Source of the DNA: Candidatus Caenarcanales bacterium
Lineage (GTDB): Bacteria; Cyanobacteriota; Vampirovibrionia; LMEP-6097
Assembly (NCBI GenBank): GCA_013216135.1
Contig: JABSOS010000002.1
Coordinates: 62,001 to 126,000 of the forward strand
Length of the DNA: 64,000 nt
Direction of reading: 5' to 3'
Both the position numbers and the translations under genes were made by a program. Shown here piece after piece: positions 17,330 to 64,000 of the stretch; within the stretch, counting starts at the first letter, position 1, and each line of letters begins with the position of its first letter. The notes beneath the pieces are model-generated. The model had not been told where the DNA came from. It did no database searches and worked only from the letters and a program-made list of their open reading frames with translations.

Positions 17330-17920
17330 ATGAAAAAATCATACATAATATTAACTTTATTTACTTTCCTAATTTCCAATCTCACGAACACACCTGCAAG
17401 AGCCTCATCATCACCTTTACTTGGAGAGATTATGCTATTTGCCGGTAATTACTGCCCTAGAGGCTGGGCTCCTACTGATGGTCAGTTAATGCCTATTAAT
17501 CGCTACTCTGCTCTTTTCTCAATTATGGGTACTCAATATGGTGGCGATGGTAGAAGTACTTTTGCTTTACCTGACCTTAGGGGAAGAGTAGCTATAGGAG
17601 AAGGAAAGGGCTCAGGATTAACCATGAAAAGAGTAGGGCAGAAAGGTGGAGTAGAGTCAGTAACCCTAACCAGCGCACAAATACCATCTCACAATCATAG
17701 CTATAGCTTTATTGTGAAAGAAGGTAGAGGGGTTAAGAGTGATGCTACAAATTCATCTCTTGCAGAATCTGGAATTTTTAGAGACTCTGGAAGAACGAAG
17801 ACACTTTCAAGCCAAACTACTAATAATACAGGTGGAAATCAAGCACACACTAATATGCAACCTTATCTTGTGCTTAAATCTTGCATTGCAATTCAAGGAA
17901 TTTTCCCATCTAGGAACTAA
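17330..17920 (+). CDS. Secreted tail-collar-domain protein (microcystin-dependent-protein family), copy 1
   Basis: The 196-residue protein has a signal peptide (cleavage after PARA near residue 25) and then the collar-domain pattern: LGEIMLFAGNYCPRGWAPTDG, FSIMGTQYGGDGRSTFALPDLRGR and the IPSHNHSY motif. The family includes phage short-tail-fibre collar domains and the bacterial 'microcystin-dependent protein' group, probably forming trimeric surface structures. The signal peptide and the absence of phage genes argue for a cell-surface rather than a phage role. A close paralogue follows 3 bp downstream. Confidence 0.85.
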   Translation: MKKSYIILTLFTFLISNLTNTPARASSSPLLGEIMLFAGNYCPRGWAPTDGQLMPINRYSALFSIMGTQYGGDGRSTFALPDLRGRVAIGEGKGSGLTMKRVGQKGGVESVTLTSAQIPSHNHSYSFIVKEGRGVKSDATNSSLAESGIFRDSGRTKTLSSQTTNNTGGNQAHTNMQPYLVLKSCIAIQGIFPSRN

Positions 17921-17923
17921 AAT

Positions 17924-18511
17924 ATGAATATGAAACAGCTATTTATAAAATTAATTTTAATAGGTTTATTGTTTAACATAAATACTTTATCTGCAAAAGC
18001 AGAACCATTAATTGGTGAAGTAAAACTGTTTAGTTCTAATTACTGCCCAAGAGGCTGGTCCCGCGCTGATGGCAAGCTTCTTAAGATTGTACATTACAGT
18101 GCCGCTTTTTCAGTAATTGGGAATACATACGGTGGTGATGGCAGAACAAATTTTGCTTTACCTGATTTAAGAGGGAGAGTCCCCGTTGGATTTGGTAATG
18201 GAAATGGACTAAGCCAAAGAGAGCTTGGAGAAAAAGGTGGTTTAGAACTGGTCATGCTAACAGAAGCTCAAATACCATCCCATAGTCACGATTATAGTTT
18301 TGTTGTGAAAGAAGGTAGAGGAGTCAAAGCAGATGCTACAGGTTCTTTTTTAGCAGAATCTGGAATTTTTAGAGATGAAGGTAATTTTAAAACTCTAACA
18401 AGACAGCTTACTAAAAATACTGGAAGTGCCCAGCCTCATATTAATATTCAGCCTACACTTGTATCCACTTTCTGTGTGTCTTTACAAGGTGTGTATCCAG
18501 GTAGAAATTAA
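17924..18511 (+). CDS. Secreted tail-collar-domain protein, copy 2
   Basis: This 195-residue paralogue of the preceding gene has the same plan: a signal peptide (LFNINTLSAKA), then LFSSNYCPRGWSRADG, YGGDGRTNFALPDLRGRV and IPSHSHDYSFVVKEGRG. The two proteins share long identical patches near the middle (VVKEGRGVK-DAT, AESGIFRD) but differ elsewhere, so the tandem duplication is not recent. The gene ends just before the convergent photolyase-like gene, whose stop begins at the next base. Confidence 0.85.
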   Translation: MNMKQLFIKLILIGLLFNINTLSAKAEPLIGEVKLFSSNYCPRGWSRADGKLLKIVHYSAAFSVIGNTYGGDGRTNFALPDLRGRVPVGFGNGNGLSQRELGEKGGLELVMLTEAQIPSHSHDYSFVVKEGRGVKADATGSFLAESGIFRDEGNFKTLTRQLTKNTGSAQPHINIQPTLVSTFCVSLQGVYPGRN

Positions 18512-44818: not shown

Positions 44819-47800
44819 TTAAATACCAGTATAGGCATCACTATTATAGTCAGAATTACTATTATCTAGGCTACTTCGTTGAGTTTCAAATGAAGTCATC
44901 GCCCCCTCATAACTACTTATGAGAGTTTGATTAGAATTTTCTTTAGACTCTTCATCATTAATAAGTGTCTGATAGAATTCAATCATTGAATCAAAGTAAT
45001 CAACAAGACCATCATTATGAGTTGCTGCAAACCCTAAGAATTCATCAAATTTATCCTGAATCATAGTTGTTATATCATCTTCAACAAAATCACTACTATT
45101 TTCATTAACAACCCCAGAAATTAATCTAAGTCTCAATTCATTATTCATTAAACCATCATCTTTGAGTTGGGTAATATCATTAATGAGACTCAATGACTCA
45201 TCTGTTATTTCGTCAGTAATCTTATATTCCCCACCTACGTATTCAGCTAAAGCTGCACTATCTTCAACATTAAATCCTAAAGAAAGCATCATCATTTCAT
45301 TACTGATATTAATTGCAATATCACCTAATTCTGGATCTAATGCAATTTCATCATCAGTAGAGATACTCTCTCTTAACTTAAGTTCAACTGCCTCATTAGC
45401 TTGATCTAACATATTTGTAAGTTCAATAAACCTTTGCTCAGCTTCATCTGAAGCAAATCCAAACTCTTGAATATTACTGATCATTGTTTCATTTGCATCA
45501 CTTTGTTCAGCAAAGAAAAATTCTAATGATTCATAAAGAAGCTTGTCATTATCACTTACATTAGGTCCCTTAGCAAGTCCACTATACATAGCAGTCTTAC
45601 CTAAATTCATAGAATCATTCACAAGAAGTGCATCAAAACCAGATTCATGTCTCTTGTCACCGACAACCTTCATCATTATGTCGTAATCTTCAGTGTCAAT
45701 AATACCGTCAGAGTTAAAATCAAGGTTCAGATCTTCACCTTCTACACCATAATTTTCATGAAATGCAGCTAAAACATCTTCCACAGCATCAGCATTTAAA
45801 GTACCATCATCATTAAAGCCACCTAAGTTTGCCACTACTTTTTCTGTAGTTTCATCATTTTGAATAACAGCCATCATCGATTCCATTTTCAAGAACCATT
45901 TTTCTTCTAATTCTCTGTATTCATCAGTGTTCTTAGCATCAGCATGCTGCAAATCACCATTATTATAGAGATAAGCTTCCATTTGATCACCAATGTCCAT
46001 CATTTCATGGAATTGATTTTCAATAAATTTAGCCTCTGCATCAGTCATTTGACTTTCACCACCTTTAAATTCATTGTTATTTACATCATGAAATAGAGCT
46101 GATCTCAAGCCCCACATAGCGTGATACTGTTGATTAGATTGATGAAATAAAGCGTAACCACTTTGAGCAAGCTCCGATGTAGTAAAATTATCGTTATCAT
46201 CACTAACAAAGTTATCTTCAAAATGAATCAAATCTACTTTACTATTTCCTGAGACATTATCAGTAGCATTAGCAATATCTACATCTATATAATCTCTTAT
46301 ATAATTACCTCTATCAGCATATGAAATATGAATTGCTTCACCAATCATATCCATAAGTTTAAGTTTATTTTCATCTCCACCACGAAGCCCTACTAAAAAT
46401 ACATTAGATTCATTTCTAATGTTTTCAAAGTATGATAACGAAAAATCATTCCACCAATCAGAGCCTGGATTTGCATCACCATACTCCATAGCATCAGTCA
46501 TCATATCTGTTCTACTTTGAGTAAGGTCTTGCATCTCATCTAACATGTCAGTAACATTTGCATTACCTGCCTTATGGTGCCACGCAAGTCCAATATCTTG
46601 CTTAGCATCCCAGTTAGCTTGATTTGCTGCCCAATTATTATAACGATATTCTCTCCAATCTTTCTTTTGCTGAGAAGTGTCACCAGCATTATCATGAAAA
46701 GCATCTAAAGCTTCAAATTTATCTTCAACAGTATGAACATAGCGTCCACTACTTGCAAGAAACTGAGATAACACTGCAGTATCTTCATCTTCGTAATTAC
46801 CAGTAAAGAAAGTTTCATCCCCAATAGTTGTAAACAACTCAGGATTAGCTTCTTCGTCAATCTTAGCTACAGCTAAAACATCCATTTGAGTTCTAAATGT
46901 TCCCCAACCTACATCTGTAGACATACTTTTATAGAAATCTAAAGCCTCATCAAAACTAATGATCATATCACCATCACTAATGGTCTCTAAAGTATTTTCA
47001 ACATTTTGAATTGTATCTGCATTTACACCATTAGCAATTAAAGCAGCTTTGATTACATCTAAATCAATACCATCAACTTCACCACCATTCTGGTAAGCAG
47101 TCGTAATTAATGCAGCAATCTCAGTGGTTTCCACCGCACCATCTCTATCAAAATTAGTTAACTTAAGTGCTTTCTCTTTCATAGAAGTAACACTTTCTTT
47201 TGCCTGTGCATATTTAGAGTCTTCACCTGTATATAAAGCTTTAACATCAGCAATAGTAGTAACCTGGATAATATCACTCTCCATATCTTCGATAATCCAG
47301 CCACTAAGTGGATCTATACCATCTGCTTCCCATGATGCAACAACAGCCTGGTCTAAAGCATCATTTGAAGTCTTCATCGTATGAACAGACTCAACAAACT
47401 CTCTGGCTCTTCTTGAAGCTTCAGCCTTTGCACTAAGAATGTTTGCCTCATCTGAACCTACTCCATATTGAGCGACTGCATCTGAAAGCTGCTCATTAAA
47501 CTCAATTTCATAATCAAAAGTCTTCTCATAAGCTTCAAGGTCTTTAACAGACATACCTTCAGATAGCTTAGTTAACATTTCTTTAGCTTTGTTAAGCTTC
47601 ATAGCTGCAACATTAGTTTTAGAAAAAGGAGCTCCAATCATTCCTTCATGAACATTCATATCTACATCTTGAATGTTTTCATTTTGAGCTTCAGATTGAA
47701 AGTTAACTACTAAATCATCATAAGTGTTTAGAATCTCTATGAAAATTTCCTTTTCAGCAGTACCTAAAGTATTATATGTATCTTCTATGCCTAGATCATT

Positions 47801-48328
47801 CAGGAAAGTTTGTTCTTTATCAAAAATAGCAAGAGAAATCTGATTCTCTTCATATTCCTGAATCATTTTTTTATAGACATCTTCAACTTCTTGAGTGCCT
47901 TCTCCTAAATATTTCAACTTTTCAAAATCTGGATAATAATCAGTATTCTGTGCCAACTCTAAAGGATCATTTTCCGCTGGAATGCCTATAATGTTAATCA
48001 TAAAACTATCGATTTCATTATTAACAATGGCAATATTCTCTTTTGATTGATCAATAAAGTTATTGACGTAGTTATTTAATTCACCGATTTCTAGTATTAC
48101 ATTTGAAGAAGTTTCTACACCATTATTATACGTAGTTTGATCTGTTTGGTCACTGATATACTCCCCGAAAGCATCCTCACCACCTTCTATCTCGTTGTGC
48201 ATTATAGGAGTGACTTCAGCTTGTTCTGTATATCTAAAATTCGCACTACCTAGAATATTCTCTTCGTACATTTTATTTACGTCTTGTAAGTAATTCTTGT
48301 AATACTCTAAATCTTTATTAATTTCCAT
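44819..48328 (-). CDS. Very large acidic protein with EF-hand-like calcium-binding loops
   Basis: The 1169-residue protein is strongly acidic (Asp/Glu/Asn-rich), predicted largely helical, with no signal peptide and no membrane helix. It holds calcium-loop-like sequences in two pairs: FDRDGAVETTEI (near 393) with SDGDMIISFDEAL (near 446), and FNDDGTLNADAV (near 834) with FNSDGIIDTEDYD (near 870). The spacing of about 36-53 residues fits EF-hand or dockerin-like pairs. I know no full-length relative. With no Sec signal it may be cytoplasmic or exported by another route. The gene is codirectional with the hypothetical gene 48410-49315. Confidence 0.75.
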   Translation of the reverse strand: MEINKDLEYYKNYLQDVNKMYEENILGSANFRYTEQAEVTPIMHNEIEGGEDAFGEYISDQTDQTTYNNGVETSSNVILEIGELNNYVNNFIDQSKENIAIVNNEIDSFMINIIGIPAENDPLELAQNTDYYPDFEKLKYLGEGTQEVEDVYKKMIQEYEENQISLAIFDKEQTFLNDLGIEDTYNTLGTAEKEIFIEILNTYDDLVVNFQSEAQNENIQDVDMNVHEGMIGAPFSKTNVAAMKLNKAKEMLTKLSEGMSVKDLEAYEKTFDYEIEFNEQLSDAVAQYGVGSDEANILSAKAEASRRAREFVESVHTMKTSNDALDQAVVASWEADGIDPLSGWIIEDMESDIIQVTTIADVKALYTGEDSKYAQAKESVTSMKEKALKLTNFDRDGAVETTEIAALITTAYQNGGEVDGIDLDVIKAALIANGVNADTIQNVENTLETISDGDMIISFDEALDFYKSMSTDVGWGTFRTQMDVLAVAKIDEEANPELFTTIGDETFFTGNYEDEDTAVLSQFLASSGRYVHTVEDKFEALDAFHDNAGDTSQQKKDWREYRYNNWAANQANWDAKQDIGLAWHHKAGNANVTDMLDEMQDLTQSRTDMMTDAMEYGDANPGSDWWNDFSLSYFENIRNESNVFLVGLRGGDENKLKLMDMIGEAIHISYADRGNYIRDYIDVDIANATDNVSGNSKVDLIHFEDNFVSDDNDNFTTSELAQSGYALFHQSNQQYHAMWGLRSALFHDVNNNEFKGGESQMTDAEAKFIENQFHEMMDIGDQMEAYLYNNGDLQHADAKNTDEYRELEEKWFLKMESMMAVIQNDETTEKVVANLGGFNDDGTLNADAVEDVLAAFHENYGVEGEDLNLDFNSDGIIDTEDYDIMMKVVGDKRHESGFDALLVNDSMNLGKTAMYSGLAKGPNVSDNDKLLYESLEFFFAEQSDANETMISNIQEFGFASDEAEQRFIELTNMLDQANEAVELKLRESISTDDEIALDPELGDIAINISNEMMMLSLGFNVEDSAALAEYVGGEYKITDEITDESLSLINDITQLKDDGLMNNELRLRLISGVVNENSSDFVEDDITTMIQDKFDEFLGFAATHNDGLVDYFDSMIEFYQTLINDEESKENSNQTLISSYEGAMTSFETQRSSLDNSNSDYNSDAYTGI

Positions 48329-48409
48329 AATTTACGCTCCACCTAAAAGAAGATATAACCTCTAAAAGTTAAGAGCTAATTAAAGTTAATACGTTCTTTT
48401 GAAAATTTT

Positions 48410-49315
48410 TTACGTTACAGCCTCTGCACCAGTGTTTTCAACAGTAATACCACCAGTAAGTAATCCATTATTATCGAAACCTAAACCTTGAGCTCCAATA
48501 AAGTTCTGAACAAGCATATCATTGATTTGTTTAGCTTCAGAATCTTCATCTTCCTTCTCAGGATCTTTACTAGCTGCTATAGAAATTTCCATAACTTGCT
48601 CTGCTTCTGCACGCTGTTCTTCATCTGCTGCAACTTCTCCAGAAGTGGTATAAGCACCTGTCAATTCACCAAATGAATTAACTAATCTCTCTTTAGTAGC
48701 ACTAACCATTTGCTCTGCTTGTTCCTTAGCTATATTTCCAGCAGCTTGACCATTAATAGTGTTAATGATGTCATCAGAAGCAGATAAAAGCATTTGATCA
48801 TATCTAGATAAACCCGTAGCTGGATCAATTTGAGTAAGCATAGCTTCAAGACCTTTACCGTCATCTCCTCCCATACCTTTTGCTACTATATCTCTTGCTG
48901 TTTGTTCATCCACACCGGTTTCCATTACTTTTTGAACTGCTTCTTCAATTAATTCATCTATAGTAGGAAGAGATATATATAACTTATCTATAGTTTTATT
49001 AGCCACCTCCTGAACCTGAGGTGACGGAAATACATGTCGATTCATAGCATAGTTAGTTAATTCATGCTGTCCATCAATCATCGGAGTAGCTCCAGCGTTT
49101 CCCCATGCTGCAGTAGAAGGTGCACCATTAAAAGCTTGTGCTGCATCAGTTCCTGTGTATTGAGGAAGAGTACCATAGCTAGTATCAATTGTATAGGTAG
49201 AAGATGGCGTAGGGACACTAGGATTTATTCCTGGTGTTACTGGACTCGTCACTAATGATCTAGGGTTTGAGTAAACACTAGGATCAGTATAGTTTGTTGG
49301 AGTTATCTTAGCCAA
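48410..49315 (-). CDS. Hypothetical acidic protein with Pro/Ser/Thr-rich N-terminus
   Basis: The 301-residue protein starts with about 80 residues rich in Pro, Ser, Thr and Tyr (YSNPRSLVTSPVTPG), probably unfolded. An acidic helical part follows, including EEAVQKVMETGVDEQTARDIV and EEQRAEAEQVMEISIAA. No signal peptide, membrane helix or known domain is seen. The start is TTG at 49315. It lies upstream of the 1169-codon EF-hand-like gene on the same strand with an 81-bp gap. The unstructured N-terminus resembles type III export signals in composition, but that is not proof. Confidence 0.65.
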   Translation of the reverse strand: MAKITPTNYTDPSVYSNPRSLVTSPVTPGINPSVPTPSSTYTIDTSYGTLPQYTGTDAAQAFNGAPSTAAWGNAGATPMIDGQHELTNYAMNRHVFPSPQVQEVANKTIDKLYISLPTIDELIEEAVQKVMETGVDEQTARDIVAKGMGGDDGKGLEAMLTQIDPATGLSRYDQMLLSASDDIINTINGQAAGNIAKEQAEQMVSATKERLVNSFGELTGAYTTSGEVAADEEQRAEAEQVMEISIAASKDPEKEDEDSEAKQINDMLVQNFIGAQGLGFDNNGLLTGGITVENTGAEAVT

Positions 49316-54073: not shown

Positions 54074-55168
54074 TTGAAAAATTTAATATACCTAGGCACA
54101 TCAATAATTAACCAGAGAAGCAACCCACTTGCATCTAAGCTTAGGTATTGTACAGCTAGAGAACTAAGTAAAATTAAAGTTTCACACGATGACTACGAAG
54201 CTTTTTTAAATTATTTAAAGCAAGAGAATAAAGAAATTAAAGAGATAGCTTTAATTTCAACTTGTAATCGTTTTGAATTTGTTATTTTTCTTCATGAGCA
54301 TATTGATGGACTCGACGCTGCAGCAGATAAAATCAAAAGTTCAATATTCAGATTTCTTGAAAAAGAATTTGAGATGTCACTATTATTTGAAAATGAAGCT
54401 AGGCTTCAAATTTTAAGAACTTATTGTGGTTTGAATAGTGGTCTAGTAGGAGAATCTGAAATTTGTTTACAAGTGAGCGGTGCTTTTAAACAAGCTATTA
54501 ATTTAGGACTGTTAGAAGAACATGGGTTAGAGCTATTAAAAGAAGCTCAAATTTTAAGAAACTTTTTTAATGAAGAAATTTATCTAAAGCCAATCTCTTA
54601 TTGTGAAATTGCTATAGAGAAAGCTTTTAGAAGCTTATCATTAATATCTCCTCTTAAATCAGTTTGTATTTTAGGTTCTGGTAGTACTGCCATCCAATCA
54701 GGCTTAGCTTTAGTGAAAAATAAAATTCCAGCATCTAATATAACTCTTATCCATAGGGTAAGTTCATCCTCTCAACAAATCGAATACTTTAAATCTAAAC
54801 GAGAATTAGATGGAATGAATTTTGTTCGTTCTAAGAAACACGGATATAAAACCCCTAAAATTGCAAATTTATGTTCAGTAAACGATTTGATAGTTTTTGG
54901 GATTGATGCAAAAAACCCTGTTGTAGAATTTCCAGAAAGATGTAATCAAGTAATATTTGACTTTAATTCCAATCCTTCATGCAGCTTCTCTAGCAATAGA
55001 AAACATGAAAACTATTTCCCACTAAATGACCTTGACGCATTTGTTCGTGAATATTCTTACAGACAGAATAATGACTTTGAATTATCTTCAAGATTGAATT
55101 TTGGTGAAAGATATATTCAACACCATATTAAAAATAACGTTAAAACCTTTTCTTCCAGCTTAGTTTAG
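54074..55168 (+). CDS. hemA: Divergent glutamyl-tRNA reductase-like protein
   Basis: The 364-residue protein carries the HemA active-site motif ISTCNRFEF (Cys64), the second conserved block GLVGESEICLQVSGAF near residue 136, and a NADPH-type Rossmann motif LGSGSTAIQSGL near 206. Glutamyl-tRNA reductase makes glutamate-1-semialdehyde for haem. This protein is shorter than usual (about 420) and its N-terminus (LGTSIINQRSN) departs from the normal GxxHKTAP pattern, so activity is uncertain. The start is TTG at 54074. Its end overlaps the convergent pentapeptide-repeat gene by 29 bp. Confidence 0.7.
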   Translation: MKNLIYLGTSIINQRSNPLASKLRYCTARELSKIKVSHDDYEAFLNYLKQENKEIKEIALISTCNRFEFVIFLHEHIDGLDAAADKIKSSIFRFLEKEFEMSLLFENEARLQILRTYCGLNSGLVGESEICLQVSGAFKQAINLGLLEEHGLELLKEAQILRNFFNEEIYLKPISYCEIAIEKAFRSLSLISPLKSVCILGSGSTAIQSGLALVKNKIPASNITLIHRVSSSSQQIEYFKSKRELDGMNFVRSKKHGYKTPKIANLCSVNDLIVFGIDAKNPVVEFPERCNQVIFDFNSNPSCSFSSNRKHENYFPLNDLDAFVREYSYRQNNDFELSSRLNFGERYIQHHIKNNVKTFSSSLV

Positions 55169-56762
55169 ATTTGTTAACCCATTCTGGTAAGCTTGCTGCT
55201 CTATGAGATTTATCTGCTGCTTCTAACTGTTCAATAGTTAATTCTTCTGCATCCTTTAACAATGCTTTTTGTACTTGAGCATGACTAAAGTTTGCATTTT
55301 GAACATTTGCTCCTCTAAAGTTTGCTCCATGTAAAATTGCTTCCTCAAAATTCACTCCTGTTAAATCAGCACCTCTAAAATCTACAGCAGTAAGGTTTGC
55401 GCCTTTAAAATTAGCATTCTTCAGCTTCGCCTGACTAAAGTTAGCACCTAAAAGAAATGCATCCCTGAAGTTAGTACTAAAAGCTAAAGCCCCATTAAAC
55501 TGGGCTTCTTTCATCTCAATTTCCTTAAAATTAACCCCAGCAAGAAAACTCTTAGTAAAGTTAGCAAGTTCCCCTTTAGCTCCATAGAAATTAGCATTCG
55601 TTAGATCAGTCTCAATAAATTTCACATGGCAAACCTTAGACCTGATAAAACTAGAATCCCTTAGATCTGCTAAACTCAAATCAGAGCCTTCTAACTGCGC
55701 CCCTCTAAACTGAGCATCCTCAATATAAACACCCATTAAATTTACCCCTTTCATGTTACTTTGGATAAATTTATTTAAATATTTAAAATCTACAGACCTT
55801 AAATCTAAACCTGATAGATTTATTTTTTCAGTATATTCAGTTCCCCTAGCAGAAACTTTGCCTAAATCTTGCTCTTCTAATATAAGTAATAACTGGTCAT
55901 TTGTTATTAAACCAGGATACTTATCGCTCATAATAATTTCTTTTTTCTTTTCATGATGGTGATGAAGAGGAAGATCTGTATGATCTAAATATTTCTCTGG
56001 ATGCTTAACATAGTTACGGATTATATCCTTAACCTCTTCGTTAAATGGACCTTTAACACCTTCTGGTAATTTTCTATTAATTTTTATATAGCCTATTAGG
56101 TGTTTATAATCTTCCTGGTCATCAAACTTTAAAGACCAAACAAAAAATACAATTCCACCAATAAGCCCTATCACAATAAGCAACTGTAGTAGCTTACTCT
56201 TAGCAATTGCTTCAAAATCACTGACAGTGTTTACTTGATATTTTATATACTTATCAAAACGTTCAAAAACATTTCTAGAGTTTATTCTTTCTAAAAACTC
56301 TTCATCAGTTAAAGCTTCATCAACTATCGTCAGGTCTTTTGATAGACTTTCTTTGATTTGTTTGATACTTGCTTGAGTCTCTTCAGCATCTTTAGAATCT
56401 TTACTTGGCTTATCAGCTTCTGACTTAGGAGCTTGCCCTTCTTCAGCAGCAGAAGCTTCTTCCTTAGGGTTAGAATCACTCTCCTCTGAACTATCTTCTG
56501 TTTCAGACTCCTCAGCTTTATCCTCAGAGTCAGATTCCACCTCTCCAGAATCAGCTTCTTCCTCTTCAGAATCATAAGTGGGACCTTCAGAAGCCTCTTC
56601 CTCAGAATCTTCTACTTCTCCAGTTTCATCTTCACCCACGTCAGTATCCTGCTCAGGAGTATCCTCAGCATTAACTTCTTCTGTCTCAGGTGCAGCTTCT
56701 TGATTATCTTCAGTTTGTTCTTCGTCTAAATCAGGAACTGCTTCTAGTTCTTCATCAGGCAT
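55140..56762 (-). CDS. Acidic membrane-anchored pentapeptide-repeat protein
   Basis: The 540-residue protein has three parts. Residues 1-135 are extremely rich in Glu, Asp and Ser and surely disordered. Residues 191-211 form one membrane helix (LLQLLIVIGLIGGIVFFVWS). From about 325 to 510 there are pentapeptide repeats of the A(D/N)(L/F)xx type (ANFKGANLTAVDFRGADLTG), which fold into a right-handed quadrilateral beta-helix. With no signal peptide, the acidic tail is probably in the cytoplasm and the repeats outside. The function of such proteins is mostly unknown. The gene follows tgt by 6 bp. Confidence 0.82.
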   Translation of the reverse strand: MPDEELEAVPDLDEEQTEDNQEAAPETEEVNAEDTPEQDTDVGEDETGEVEDSEEEASEGPTYDSEEEEADSGEVESDSEDKAEESETEDSSEESDSNPKEEASAAEEGQAPKSEADKPSKDSKDAEETQASIKQIKESLSKDLTIVDEALTDEEFLERINSRNVFERFDKYIKYQVNTVSDFEAIAKSKLLQLLIVIGLIGGIVFFVWSLKFDDQEDYKHLIGYIKINRKLPEGVKGPFNEEVKDIIRNYVKHPEKYLDHTDLPLHHHHEKKKEIIMSDKYPGLITNDQLLLILEEQDLGKVSARGTEYTEKINLSGLDLRSVDFKYLNKFIQSNMKGVNLMGVYIEDAQFRGAQLEGSDLSLADLRDSSFIRSKVCHVKFIETDLTNANFYGAKGELANFTKSFLAGVNFKEIEMKEAQFNGALAFSTNFRDAFLLGANFSQAKLKNANFKGANLTAVDFRGADLTGVNFEEAILHGANFRGANVQNANFSHAQVQKALLKDAEELTIEQLEAADKSHRAASLPEWVNKSKLSWKKRF

Positions 56763-58963: not shown

Positions 58964-59386
58964 TTGACTGAAGATAGAGACAAACAGATACCTTGCATAG
59001 TAGGGAAAGGTCTTGTCACTGCTAAAAGAGATATGATTAGAGTTCTAAAAGGCTATGATCACGTTAAGTTTATCGATGAAATCGATGGACAAGTAATGAT
59101 AGAAGACGAAGCTTATGTAGTAGAAGTCTTTGTTTCTGATTCAGAAGGAACTTTAGTGTTTAATAGAAGAATTCATATTAATGTTAATTCATTTGACTAC
59201 TTGAGAATCATAGAAAATCAACCAGGTACTGTAGAACTTGTTGACGGACATCGGGTACTTAAATTATATGCAATAACTGATCCATTCGATAACAAAGACA
59301 TCTTAATGAATGAAGTTATCGAAAATCGTAATAATTACGACGGTTATTACCAAGAAGAAGACATAATATTCGACGATGATTTCTAA
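58964..59386 (+). CDS. Hypothetical protein, first gene of the flhA operon
   Basis: The 140-residue acidic protein starts with TTG, backed by AAGGAG eight bases upstream. It has no signal peptide or membrane helix and looks like a small alpha/beta domain (GKGLVTAKRDMIRVLKGYD, VELVDGHRVLKLYA) with an acidic Tyr/Asp-rich tail. It overlaps the flhA start by 11 bp, which suggests coupled translation and a possible flagellar role. I recognise no family. Confidence 0.65.
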   Translation: MTEDRDKQIPCIVGKGLVTAKRDMIRVLKGYDHVKFIDEIDGQVMIEDEAYVVEVFVSDSEGTLVFNRRIHINVNSFDYLRIIENQPGTVELVDGHRVLKLYAITDPFDNKDILMNEVIENRNNYDGYYQEEDIIFDDDF

Positions 59387-61499
59387 CGCCATAAATCCGC
59401 AAAACGTAAAACAATTACTTAAATCTTTATTCACTAATCAATCTAATATTCTTGCGATCTTCGTAATTATCGTAATTGGTATCTTAATGGTACCTCTACC
59501 GACTTTTATAATTGACTTAGCTTTCGTTATTAATTTCTCCATGGCTATAGGGATTATGCTCGTTACTTTATACGTTAATGAGCCTCTAGAATTTAGTACT
59601 TTCCCGACTTTACTTTTAATCATAACTTTATCGAGACTAGCTCTTGAAATTAGTGCAACAAGATCTATATTGGTTGACGCTCATGCTGGTAATGTCATTC
59701 ACGCAATCGGAGAATTTGTTGTTGGTGGAAACTTTGTTGTCGGTATTATAATTTTCCTAATTTTATTTGTTGTTAACTTTATCGTCGTAACTCAAGGTGC
59801 AGGTAGAGTATCAGAGGTTGCAGCGAGATTTGCCTTAGATAGTATGCCAGGTAAACAACTTGCTGTTGATGCAGACTTAAACGCAGGTTTAATCGATGAA
59901 GCACAAGCTAAAGAACGAAGAAAATCCATCTCTAAAGAAGCTGACTTTTACTCTACTATGGATGGTGGTTCTAAGTTCGTAAAAGGTGATGCAACGGCAT
60001 CAATCATTATTGCACTTGTAAACATCATTGCTGGCTTTATCATAGGTATGGTTCAGCTCCAGATGTCAGCTGGAGAAGCTGCTTCACTATATACACTACT
60101 AACCATTGGTGAAGGTCTAGCCTCACAAATTCCAGCCTTAATAATTTCTGTTGCTACAGGTATCATCGTTACTCGTTCAAATCCAGAAGTACAATTTGCA
60201 GATGACTTAGGTTCTCAATTATTTAGACGTAAAGAAATCATTGGTATTGCAGCCCTTACTATGTTTGTTTTAGCAATAGGTATCAGAGGTGCTTTTTTAC
60301 CATTCATGATCGTTGCTATAGCTCTAGGATACTGGACTTACACAAAGTTCAAAAATGAAAAAGATGATATGGAAACAGCAGAAGCTAGTGAAGCTGCCTT
60401 AGAAGCAGAAAATGCTGAAGCTAGCCATCATGAAAAATTAAAGCAGAAAGAAAAGGACAATAGTCCTGAAGCAGTTCTTAAGCTTTTAAAAGTTGATCAA
60501 ATAGAATTAGAAATTGGTTATAAATTAGTAGGCCTAATCGATAAAAAACAAAATGGTGACCTGATGTCCAGAATTGGGCAAATCAGAAGGCAGATAATGG
60601 TAGAGATGGGTCTCCCTATGCCTCCAGTTAGAGTACACGATAACTTAGCTGAGCTAGGAGCAGATGACTATCAAGTAAAACTTCGCGGCTCTGTAATCTC
60701 TAAAGGTTCCGTAATGGTAGATTCTTTCCTCGCTGTTAACACAGGCTTAGTTGATCCTATGGCAGATGCGCTTAGAGGAAAGGAAACTGTAGAACCTAGT
60801 TATGGTCTACCAGCAACCTGGGTTAAGGGTGAAGAAAAAGATAGAGCTGAGTCACTTGGTTATACTGTCGCGACTCCATCTTCAGTTATAGCAACACATT
60901 TAACAGAAGTTATAAAAATCTTTGCTGGAGAGATTCTCACAAGACAAAGTCTTGTAGCCATGCTTGAAGAAGTAAAAGAGTTTAATGAGAGTATAGTTGA
61001 AGAAGTTAATTCTAATATAAGTAAAGGTGAACTTCTTGCAATATTAGCAGGACTTTTAGGTGAGCAAGTTTCTATCAGAGACTTTTCTACAGTACTTGAA
61101 CATATCGCAAATAATTCTAAGCTCAATAAAGACAAGGACTTTTTAGTTGAAAGAGTTAGAGAAGGCTTAGGTAGACAACTTGTCTTTCCATACCTAATAG
61201 ACGATATTTTAAATTGTATAACTTTCCACCCAAGCATCGAAGAAGAGATTGTAAAATCCTTACACCTAGATAAGCTTGCCCTAGACCCAGCTAAAGCAAA
61301 AGTAATTCTAGAACAAATAAATTTAGCTTTTGAAGAAGTCTCTGGACAAGGCTTCCCGCCAGTATTGCTTTGCAACGGAAAGATTCGTATGCCACTTAGA
61401 AAACTTTTAGAAAGGCAACTTCCACAAATGGCTATCATCGCCTACAGTGAAATCCCTACTAATATAGAAGCTCAATCTATCATGACCATAGGAGAATAA
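59376..61499 (+). CDS. flhA: Flagellar export apparatus protein FlhA
   Basis: The 707-residue protein has the FHIPEP family layout: about eight N-terminal membrane helices in the first 320 residues, with the conserved cytoplasmic loop GRVSEVAARFALDSMPGKQ, then ERRKSISKEADFYSTMDG and KFVKGDA. A long C-terminal cytoplasmic domain follows (KLDKLALDPAKAKVILEQ near its end). It forms the ring that takes flagellar substrates to the export gate. The same family includes SctV of virulence systems; I choose FlhA because flagellin is present and no secretion-system genes are seen. A lipoprotein gene begins right after its stop. Confidence 0.92.
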   Translation: MISNAINPQNVKQLLKSLFTNQSNILAIFVIIVIGILMVPLPTFIIDLAFVINFSMAIGIMLVTLYVNEPLEFSTFPTLLLIITLSRLALEISATRSILVDAHAGNVIHAIGEFVVGGNFVVGIIIFLILFVVNFIVVTQGAGRVSEVAARFALDSMPGKQLAVDADLNAGLIDEAQAKERRKSISKEADFYSTMDGGSKFVKGDATASIIIALVNIIAGFIIGMVQLQMSAGEAASLYTLLTIGEGLASQIPALIISVATGIIVTRSNPEVQFADDLGSQLFRRKEIIGIAALTMFVLAIGIRGAFLPFMIVAIALGYWTYTKFKNEKDDMETAEASEAALEAENAEASHHEKLKQKEKDNSPEAVLKLLKVDQIELEIGYKLVGLIDKKQNGDLMSRIGQIRRQIMVEMGLPMPPVRVHDNLAELGADDYQVKLRGSVISKGSVMVDSFLAVNTGLVDPMADALRGKETVEPSYGLPATWVKGEEKDRAESLGYTVATPSSVIATHLTEVIKIFAGEILTRQSLVAMLEEVKEFNESIVEEVNSNISKGELLAILAGLLGEQVSIRDFSTVLEHIANNSKLNKDKDFLVERVREGLGRQLVFPYLIDDILNCITFHPSIEEEIVKSLHLDKLALDPAKAKVILEQINLAFEEVSGQGFPPVLLCNGKIRMPLRKLLERQLPQMAIIAYSEIPTNIEAQSIMTIGE

Positions 61500-62207: not shown

Positions 62208-64000
62208 ATGTCTAGTTTTGAGATTACAGCAGGTTTAAAGAATGCTAATAGTTTAGAAAGTGTTTCTGGTGCAAAGCAGAAGCCATTAAGCCTTAAATCA
62301 CTAAATCAAAAAAATGGTTTTAAGTTACAGGGAGTAGATTTTTCTGAAAAGTTTACAGATAGTCCTGAAAAATTAGCTAAAGCCTTAAAAACTATTGACT
62401 CGATAGGTGTGAAGTTAAATGAGATTAACTCATTTATAGAAGATGCTAAGTATGGCAATTATACTAATAATCAAAAATTAGAAAAAGAAGAAGAGTTTTT
62501 AAAAGTTATAAAAGACGTTAAAGAATTAAAGAATACCGATGAATTTAAAAGTATTCAAAATCAACTTCGTAAAAGTGGAATTAACCTAAACATAGGTTCT
62601 CAAAAAGTTGATAATTTCCTAAACCACTTTTTCGATACTGGTTTAGATGAATCTCAACCAGACTTAACTGGTATCTATGATCAGGTAAGCTCACTAAATA
62701 GACTTAATGCAAATAATTTTACAGTTGTAGGGGAATACTTAGTTACTGAATTAAGCTCAGTAGACGAAAGCTCTGCAGGAGTACTTGAAGGAATAGCTCT
62801 TCTGAGTAATGAAAATTCAAATGTTGAAAATTCAATGAACTTAGATTCAGTCTCAGAAAGCTTTAAAGCTTTCCCTGCTAGATCATACTCTAGTGATAAT
62901 AATCAAGTACTAGTAGCTCTTGATGGTATACAGACAAGTGAAACTGTTGAACCAAACTTAAAAGCTGCTTATTTATTTGATGCAGAAACTCACAATCAAG
63001 TATCTTCTTTCAGCCACCCAGACTTTGAAGTAAACATGACATTTAAAGGTGGGGAAATTAAAGACGACAATGTATATATTCATAGTGAAGGAGCTGAATA
63101 TCTCTTTAAAACAGATGGCGAATTTGTTAATAAATTCAAAACTGAAAATAGTCAAAAATTAAATGAGTCGCGCATAGTTAATGGTGACTTATATGCAATT
63201 GGACCTGCATCAGAAAAAAAAGATGGCAGAATTGTAGGTGCTCTCTATAAATTTGATATTGAGTCAGGTAAACAAACCGCAGAAATACCAAGCCCAGGAT
63301 CAAGTGGCAATGGTACTTTTGGTGTCAACATGGAAAGCTTAGGTGATAAATTATTTATTACTGAAAGTGACATTATCAAAAAAGATGGTGGACACATCAC
63401 AAAAGGAAGAGTTCACGTCTATGACTCTTCTACAGGTAGCTTTGAAGGTGAGATCAATCCTAAAAATGATATAAAAGGTGCAGGCTTATTTGGAGAGTCA
63501 ATGGCTGTAAGTGACACTTTTGTTGCAGTTACAGCAAAAAGTAGCTCAGCAACAGGTACAGAAAACACTAGCATTCATGTATTTGATTCGAGGCTTGGAA
63601 CCCAAATACATAAAATTACACCTCAGTACTATGGTACAGAACTTTCAGGTAATATCGAAATCAGTGATGATAAGTTACTAATTTCATCTCAAGATAAAGC
63701 TGGAAGATCAAATATCTATGAATTCGACTTAAGTACTAGAGAGAAAAATTTAGATAAATTCATGAGTATGATTGGCGATGATGCAAGAGTCATAGATGCC
63801 ATTAAAACAAATATTGTTGCAAATAGACTTTCAGACATGAATGGTACAACTACTTATGAAGGAAGAGAAGGTAAAGAAAGCACTTATACTGGAAGAGAAA
63901 GATTATCTACAGGAAAAGCTGAAAGTCTTTATAATGGACGAGCAGGTAAGGAAAGTACTTACTCTGGTAGAGTCGGTAAAGAAAGCACCTTTAATGGTAG
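62208..64000 (+). CDS. Large repeat-bearing protein, probably beta-propeller-like (truncated by window edge)
   Basis: This frame is absent from the ORF track because it has no stop in the window. It starts at ATG 62208 behind GGGGGGAGC and stays open for 597 codons. Residues 1-150 are helical and Lys/Asn-rich, without a signal peptide. Residues about 210-510 show repeated blades of the type KLFITESDI...GRVHVYDSSTGSFEGEI and TFVAVTAKSS...SIHVFDSRLGTQIHKI, as in outer-membrane or FG-GAP-like beta-propellers. From about residue 552 a short tandem repeat, GR-GKEST(Y/F)-G, begins and continues off the edge. I do not know a full-length relative. Confidence 0.75.
   Translation, partial: MSSFEITAGLKNANSLESVSGAKQKPLSLKSLNQKNGFKLQGVDFSEKFTDSPEKLAKALKTIDSIGVKLNEINSFIEDAKYGNYTNNQKLEKEEEFLKVIKDVKELKNTDEFKSIQNQLRKSGINLNIGSQKVDNFLNHFFDTGLDESQPDLTGIYDQVSSLNRLNANNFTVVGEYLVTELSSVDESSAGVLEGIALLSNENSNVENSMNLDSVSESFKAFPARSYSSDNNQVLVALDGIQTSETVEPNLKAAYLFDAETHNQVSSFSHPDFEVNMTFKGGEIKDDNVYIHSEGAEYLFKTDGEFVNKFKTENSQKLNESRIVNGDLYAIGPASEKKDGRIVGALYKFDIESGKQTAEIPSPGSSGNGTFGVNMESLGDKLFITESDIIKKDGGHITKGRVHVYDSSTGSFEGEINPKNDIKGAGLFGESMAVSDTFVAVTAKSSSATGTENTSIHVFDSRLGTQIHKITPQYYGTELSGNIEISDDKLLISSQDKAGRSNIYEFDLSTREKNLDKFMSMIGDDARVIDAIKTNIVANRLSDMNGTTTYEGREGKESTYTGRERLSTGKAESLYNGRAGKESTYSGRVGKESTFNG
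63861..64000 (+). repeat. In-frame tandem repeat encoding GRxGKEST(Y/F)xG units
   Basis: At least four units of about ten codons are visible: GREGKESTYTG, a diverged GRERLSTGKAESLYNG, GRAGKESTYSG and GRVGKESTFNG. Codon choices vary between units, so the repeat is kept at the protein level. It is cut by the window end. Confidence 0.8.

What the first reader, a model, noticed from the sequence alone, without database searches (positions are those of the whole stretch)
44819..48328. A 1169-residue acidic protein with paired calcium loops and no known relatives
Its size, strong acidity, lack of a signal peptide and two pairs of EF-hand or dockerin-like loops are unusual. Calcium could lock its fold after release from the cell, as in proteins exported by non-Sec routes.
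Basis: partly seen in the sequence, partly recalled or inferred. Interest (0 to 1): 0.55.

Follow-up and report, generated by a model that had tools for sequence, protein, structure and literature searches.

The report
Acidic calcium-loop protein, likely exported
This is a real, conserved 1169-residue protein family confined to a few non-photosynthetic cyanobacterial relatives (Caenarcaniphilales), carrying true EF-hand calcium loops and a tail shared with giant proteins made in the flagellar operon, which suggests it is exported from the cell by the flagellum's secretion machine and folds in calcium outside.

Summary
The ORF is real: 1169 aa, pI 4.05, no cysteine, ribosome-binding site in place. 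Orthologues in three other MAGs evolve under purifying selection. Two of the four claimed calcium loops match the EF-hand consensus in the window protein (392-403, 870-881). A third is intact in the orthologues and degraded here; the fourth is degenerate throughout. "No relatives" is half right. No Pfam, NCBIfam, phage, plasmid or PDB-fold match exists, but there are three orthologues (~50%) and a paralogue subfamily (~24%), all in one Caenarcaniphilales family. The paralogue overlaps fliJ in the flagellar fliJ-flgE operon. A Q-like protein also sits directly upstream of the hook/rod genes in one genome. Q's last ~50 residues are a module (E=1.8e-10) shared only with giant acidic proteins from this operon and elsewhere. 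Those giants carry EF-hand pairs and, in several, DUF1521 with GDPH, the calcium-triggered domain of type III-secreted NopE proteins. Best reading: a substrate of the flagellar-type export system that calcium folds outside the cell (about 0.5). Rivals: a type I secretion substrate or a cytoplasmic export-apparatus partner. Residues 78-480 model well as a helical bundle plus EF-hand region (pLDDT 77.5, pTM 0.72) with no PDB match.

The parts
44819..48328 (-). Gene for the 1169-aa acidic Cys-free protein (called Q here)
   Evidence: orthologues
48337..48344 (-). Ribosome-binding site AGGTGGAG upstream of the ATG
   Evidence: sequence
46889..48097 (-). Residues 78-480: helical bundle plus EF-hand pair region, modelled with pLDDT 77.5 / pTM 0.72, no PDB fold match
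47120..47155 (-). EF-hand loop 1, residues 392-403 NFDRDGAVETTE (canonical; N-x-N/D-R-D-G in all orthologues)
46946..46981 (-). Decayed partner loop (~450-461, ISDGDMIISFDE), perfect EF loop DTNNDGQMSFDE in orthologues
45785..45820 (-). Degenerate partner loop, residues 837-848 GFNDDGTLNADA; not a canonical loop in any orthologue
45686..45721 (-). EF-hand loop 4, residues 870-881 DFNSDGIIDTED (canonical, conserved in all orthologues; D870, N872, D874, D881 invariant down to the paralogues)
45659..47965 (-). Core homologous to paralogue P (residues 122-890), the fliJ-overlapping protein on contig C6 of the same genome
44855..45004 (-). C-terminal module, residues 1109-1158, shared with giant proteins of the fliJ-flgE operon and others (E=1.8e-10 with a model built without Q or its orthologues)
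48410..49315 (-). Upstream gene, 301 aa, TTG start, pI 4.15, no Cys, no homologue found in this genome; possible co-transcribed partner (81-base gap)
59376..61499 (+). FlhA of a flagellar-type export apparatus, 11 kb away (context, not a proven partner)

Best explanation
Q is an exported, calcium-binding member of a lineage-specific family of large acidic proteins that arose in and around the flagellar fliJ-flgE operon of Caenarcaniphilales. It is probably passed unfolded through one of the cell's two flagellar-type (type III) export systems; the absence of Cys and of a Sec signal and the low Lys/Arg content fit this. Outside, millimolar calcium fills its one to two intact EF-hand sites and neutralises its charge, so that the helical domains fold. 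The two-helix tail it shares with the giant sister proteins then serves export or docking on a common surface structure. Shown: gene, conservation, EF-hand loops, operon linkage of the paralogues, shared tail, helical-bundle prediction. Inferred: export, route, calcium-triggered folding, docking.
For: Paralogue P overlaps fliJ by about 20 bases in three genomes (fliJ end against P start) and lies, in the window's genome, in fliJ-P-(288 aa)-FlgE/F/G-like-ybeY-cysS. Other genera of the family have the same operon without any giant gene. A Q-like protein (41% over Q 911-1056) directly precedes the hook/rod genes in G001 (L024). The Q tail is shared only with its orthologues and the giants among 504 ORFs. 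Sister giants have N-terminal EF-hand pairs and GDPH, and several a DUF1521 above the Pfam cut-off. DUF1521 is the Ca-dependent autocleavage domain of T3-secreted NopE/VIC_001052; the Vibrio domain is disordered and acidic until Ca2+ binds (PMC6506597). DUF1521 is concentrated in this family (15 of 17 hits). Among 172 ORFs of this genome, Q, the 301-aa neighbour, four DUF1521 proteins and two giants form a pI 4.05-4.23 class in which all but one lack Cys and that one has a single Cys. Two FlhA, two FliI, two FliF and a flagellin are present.
Against: Q itself is not in a flagellar operon in any of the four genomes. Paralogue P, though in the operon, is near-neutral with 5-11 Cys, which looks cytoplasmic. 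Q has no DUF1521 and its N-terminus does not match that of the giants. An HlyD-like/TolC-like/ABC operon that could serve type I secretion exists. Only about a third of the protein is modelled with confidence.
Confidence: 0.5

Rival explanations
1. Q and the giants are type I secretion substrates: the shared C-terminal module is the secretion signal, and the acidic, Cys-free, calcium-binding composition is the usual one for such proteins.
For: Composition; C-terminal, not N-terminal, module shared between Q and giants; one TolC-like / HlyD-like / ABC-transporter operon in the genome, contig C8.
Against: No RTX repeats GGxGxD in Q; the HlyD-like protein scores 98 bits against a cut-off of 208.65 and no giant is next to it; family members lie inside the flagellar operon; the DUF1521 precedent is type III.
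Confidence: 0.2
2. Q is a cytoplasmic, calcium-sensing partner of the flagellar export apparatus (ruler, chaperone or regulator), as its fliJ-linked paralogue P may be.
For: P occupies the slot after fliJ where fliK usually lies and overlaps fliJ; core homology Q-P over residues 122-890; helical fold.
Against: Q, unlike P, has no Cys, pI 4.05, and carries the tail of the giants; no FliK match in P; canonical EF loops suit millimolar rather than nanomolar calcium (general knowledge).
Confidence: 0.18
3. Q is an ordinary acidic intracellular protein whose EF-hand-like loops are chance or relics.
For: Loop 2 has decayed in the window protein and loop 3 is degenerate; Pfam EF-hand models miss Q.
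Against: Loop 1 and loop 4 are kept in all orthologues, loop-4 ligands even in the paralogues; loop count exceeds shuffles, p=0.003; the orthologue's loop pair picks up EF-hand proteins in the PDB; the model puts loop 1 between two helices.
Confidence: 0.08

Closest known systems
NopE1/NopE2 and VIC_001052 (DUF1521/MIIA, type III-secreted, calcium-induced folding and autocleavage)
   Same: Acidic; calcium loops; no Sec signal; Q's sister giants carry DUF1521 with GDPH, an EF-hand pair and Q's tail
   Different: Q itself has no DUF1521 or GDPH, has canonical EF-hand loops instead, and is much longer; secretion here would be by a flagellar-type system
EF-hand proteins (calmodulin/troponin C type loops; PF13499)
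   Same: 12-residue DxDxDG loops, helix-loop-helix, short strand pairing in the model; orthologue loop pair matches EF-hand proteins in the PDB (best E=0.0065)
   Different: About 60 instead of about 36 residues between the two loops; below Pfam cut-offs; embedded in a large helical protein
Dockerin type I
   Same: DFNSDGIIDTEDYDIM resembles a dockerin F-hand (2y3n, E=0.12)
   Different: First half degenerate; not terminal; no cohesin sought or seen
Large RTX / type I secreted adhesins
   Same: Acidic, Cys-free, calcium loops, conserved C-terminus
   Different: No RTX nonapeptides, all-helical prediction, linkage of relatives to flagellar genes

Membership tests
EF-hand | Canonical 12-residue loop | tested here: met
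   Two loops in Q, three in orthologues; conserved columns
EF-hand | Helix-loop-helix geometry in pairs | tested here: inconclusive
   Model of 78-480: helix 372-391, loop, helix 401-413, short strands, helix 437-452, loop, helix 459-467, local pLDDT about 57-88; one partner loop decayed in Q
EF-hand | Pfam gathering score | tested here: not met
   No hit in Q; 20.5 bits against 30 in the orthologue
EF-hand | Ca2+ binding | not testable with these tools
   Needs calorimetry
Dockerin type I | Two tandem F-hand repeats, Pfam PF00404 | tested here: not met
   No PF00404 hit in Q; weak PDB match E=0.12; first repeat degenerate
NopE / DUF1521 secreted proteins | DUF1521 domain with GDPH cleavage motif | tested here: not met
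   Absent from Q; present in sister giants
Flagellar axial proteins (flagellin, hook, rod, FliD) | Family profile match | tested here: not met
   No hit
FliK/SctP length-control proteins | Gene slot after fliJ and FliK C-terminal domain | tested here: not met
   Slot is that of paralogue P only; no domain hit in P
Flagellar type III export substrates | Secretion lost without the export gate | not testable with these tools
   Linkage and composition only
RTX / type I secretion substrates | GGxGxD repeats | tested here: not met
   None in Q
RTX / type I secretion substrates | Type I secretion machinery in the genome | tested here: inconclusive
   TolC-like/HlyD-like/ABC operon on C8, HlyD below the curated cut-off

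The most novel reading that the evidence does not exclude
Caenarcaniphilales have grown, inside their flagellar hook operon, a family of giant modular proteins (EF-hand pair, DUF1521 calcium switch or helical core, expandable repeats, common tail) that a flagellar-type system exports and calcium activates on the cell surface or in a partner cell: a flagellum used as a secretion system for giant calcium-gated surface proteins or effectors in a non-photosynthetic cyanobacterial lineage, with Q as a DUF1521-less branch.
Probability: 0.3. Interest if true: 0.75.

Novelty: new variant of a known kind. Interest (0 to 1): 0.5.

Why it matters
If true, it would show that calcium-gated type III-secreted proteins of the NopE sort are not limited to pathogens and symbionts of Proteobacteria. 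It would give a concrete handle on how uncultured non-photosynthetic relatives of cyanobacteria interact with surfaces or other cells, and it would add a helical domain without a known fold match.

Tried and rejected
Pfam, NCBIfam, PHROGs, PADLOC, PDB sequence searches: no meaningful match to Q (SidC_C, EutC, ZorC and one PHROG of unknown function are marginal). Phages, plasmids and IMG/VR: nothing. Full-length structure prediction: mean pLDDT 49, fold search meaningless. Domain 78-480: good model, but the fold search gave mostly designed helical repeats at E of 0.17 or worse. Profile search of 382 genomes of the class: nothing convincing outside the one family (three hits at E of about 5e-4 judged chance). 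N-terminal signal shared with the giants: not found for Q. RTX motif search: negative for Q. Literature on type III secretion in Melainabacteria: nothing relevant found.

Full report
What is there. The ORF at 44819-48328 on the minus strand is a genuine gene: ATG start, AGGTGGAG ribosome-binding site, 1169 aa, pI 4.05, 20.6% acidic against 6.3% basic residues, no cysteine. It follows a 301-aa, equally acidic and Cys-free gene after 81 bases, and glpK begins 35 bases downstream. Orthologues in other MAGs evolve with dN/dS of about 0.15 (dN 0.062-0.086, dS 0.43-0.53).

Calcium loops. Two loops fit the canonical EF-hand pattern, residues 392-403 and 870-881 (expected by chance 0.073, p=0.003). 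In the three orthologues the partner of the first is a perfect loop, DTNNDGQMSFDE/EE; in the window protein it has lost one residue and its first ligand. The partner of the second is degenerate in all. Loop 4 ligands are kept even in the distant paralogues. The orthologue's loop pair finds EF-hand proteins in the PDB (best E=0.0065). A model of residues 78-480 (pLDDT 77.5, pTM 0.72) shows a long-helix bundle followed by helix-loop-helix, a short strand pair and a second helix-loop-helix where the loops lie; no solved fold matches it.

Relatives. No characterised family, phage or plasmid matches. Within the genome there is one paralogue, here called P (contig C6, 1053 aa, about 25%). Three MAGs, Candidatus Melainabacteria LMEP_6097, Cyanobacteria REEB446 and Caenarcaniphilales RE-15aug16-7, hold orthologues (about 50% identity); P was found in the first two. 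A profile search over 382 genomes of the class finds nothing convincing elsewhere. The family is therefore restricted, as far as searched, to two genera of one family of non-photosynthetic cyanobacterial relatives.

Genomic link to flagellar export. P lies directly after fliJ, overlapping it by about 20 bases in three genomes; in the window's genome it is followed by a 288-aa protein, a FlgE/F/G-like protein (TIGR03506, 108 bits), ybeY and cysS. In the other genera of the same family this stretch runs fliJ - about 265 aa - FlgE-like - ybeY - cysS with no giant gene (in two of the five genomes unrelated genes of at most about 500 aa intervene), so the giant genes are specific to the two genera. 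In one genome (L024) the last gene before the hook genes is itself Q-like (41% over Q 911-1056). Other insertions are giants of up to 2579 aa. The genome has two FlhA, two FliI and two FliF; one FlhA and a flagellin lie inside the window. Earlier work inferred ancestral flagella in the class (PMC4040986).

The shared tail. A profile of the last ~105 residues of the giants, built without Q or its orthologues, finds Q at residues 1109-1158 with E=1.8e-10 and nothing outside the Q family and giants among 504 ORFs. Q is thus a P-like core plus the giants' tail; its orthologues also carry the giants' repeat region (e.g. 1786 aa in G007), which the window protein lacks.

The calcium theme in the sisters. 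Giants begin with an EF-hand-like pair (e.g. DVTKDSKFNSNE and DVTGDGKFIARE) and several continue into DUF1521 with GDPH. DUF1521 is the calcium-induced autocleavage domain of type III-secreted NopE proteins; the Vibrio homologue is a disordered, negatively charged domain that folds when Ca2+ binds (PMC6506597). In a survey of 194 genomes of the class, 15 of 17 DUF1521 matches are in this one family, six in the window's genome. In a sample of 172 ORFs of this genome, Q, its 301-aa neighbour, four DUF1521 proteins and two giants share pI 4.05-4.23, 4-7% Lys+Arg and almost no Cys.

Interpretation. The most economical reading is that Q belongs to a set of acidic proteins exported through a flagellar-type apparatus and folded by calcium outside. 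Export and folding are inferred. The chief doubts are that Q itself is not in a flagellar operon, that P looks cytoplasmic (5-11 Cys, pI about 7), and that an ABC/HlyD-like/TolC-like operon exists which could serve a type I route. These are kept as rivals at 0.18-0.2 each.

Novelty. The family and its helical domain have no described counterpart in what was searched; the mode of action proposed is a variant of a known kind (calcium-switched type III-secreted proteins).

Noticed in passing
window 62208-64000, continuing in L036:1-1734; L036:2463-4844; L036:4941-7298: A cluster beside FlhA of large proteins without signal peptides; one (793 aa) has FG-GAP repeats (PF14312, E=5e-26) and a weak Flagellin_N match, and some end like flagellins (AQANISPTAAMDMLP): possible flagellins carrying a beta-propeller.
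   Followed up: partly
L107:9713-13957 (contig C6): A second flagellar-type set, FliE-FliF-FliG-like-FliH, in which the FliG-like protein is only 131 aa (N-terminal domain at most, below cut-off): perhaps an export system without a motor. Most genomes of the family have two FlhA.
   Followed up: partly
L103:4699-10818 (contig C12), L105:5322-6350: Array of three tandem DUF1521 (GDPH) proteins of 541-734 aa, pI 4.05, no Cys, plus further copies elsewhere in the same genome.
   Followed up: partly
L106:3616-12427 (contig C34): Two giant proteins (1202 and 1648 aa) starting MVDN with EF-hand-like loops, own-genome relatives of the operon giants in the sister genus.
   Followed up: partly
L037:12865-15111 (contig C45): 748-aa protein with six EF-hand loops, five of them spaced 76 residues apart, next to the second FlhA.
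   Followed up: no
window 55140-56762 (-): 540-aa protein: long Glu/Asp-rich N-terminus, one apparent transmembrane stretch, C-terminal pentapeptide repeats.
   Followed up: no
window 17330-18511 (+): Two tandem secreted proteins resembling phage tail-collar/microcystin-dependent proteins (NYCPRGW motif), by eye.
   Followed up: no
window 48410-49315 (-): 301-aa acidic neighbour has a weak match to PtuB (PADLOC, E=9e-05, 20 bits) over residues 89-154, probably chance.
   Followed up: no
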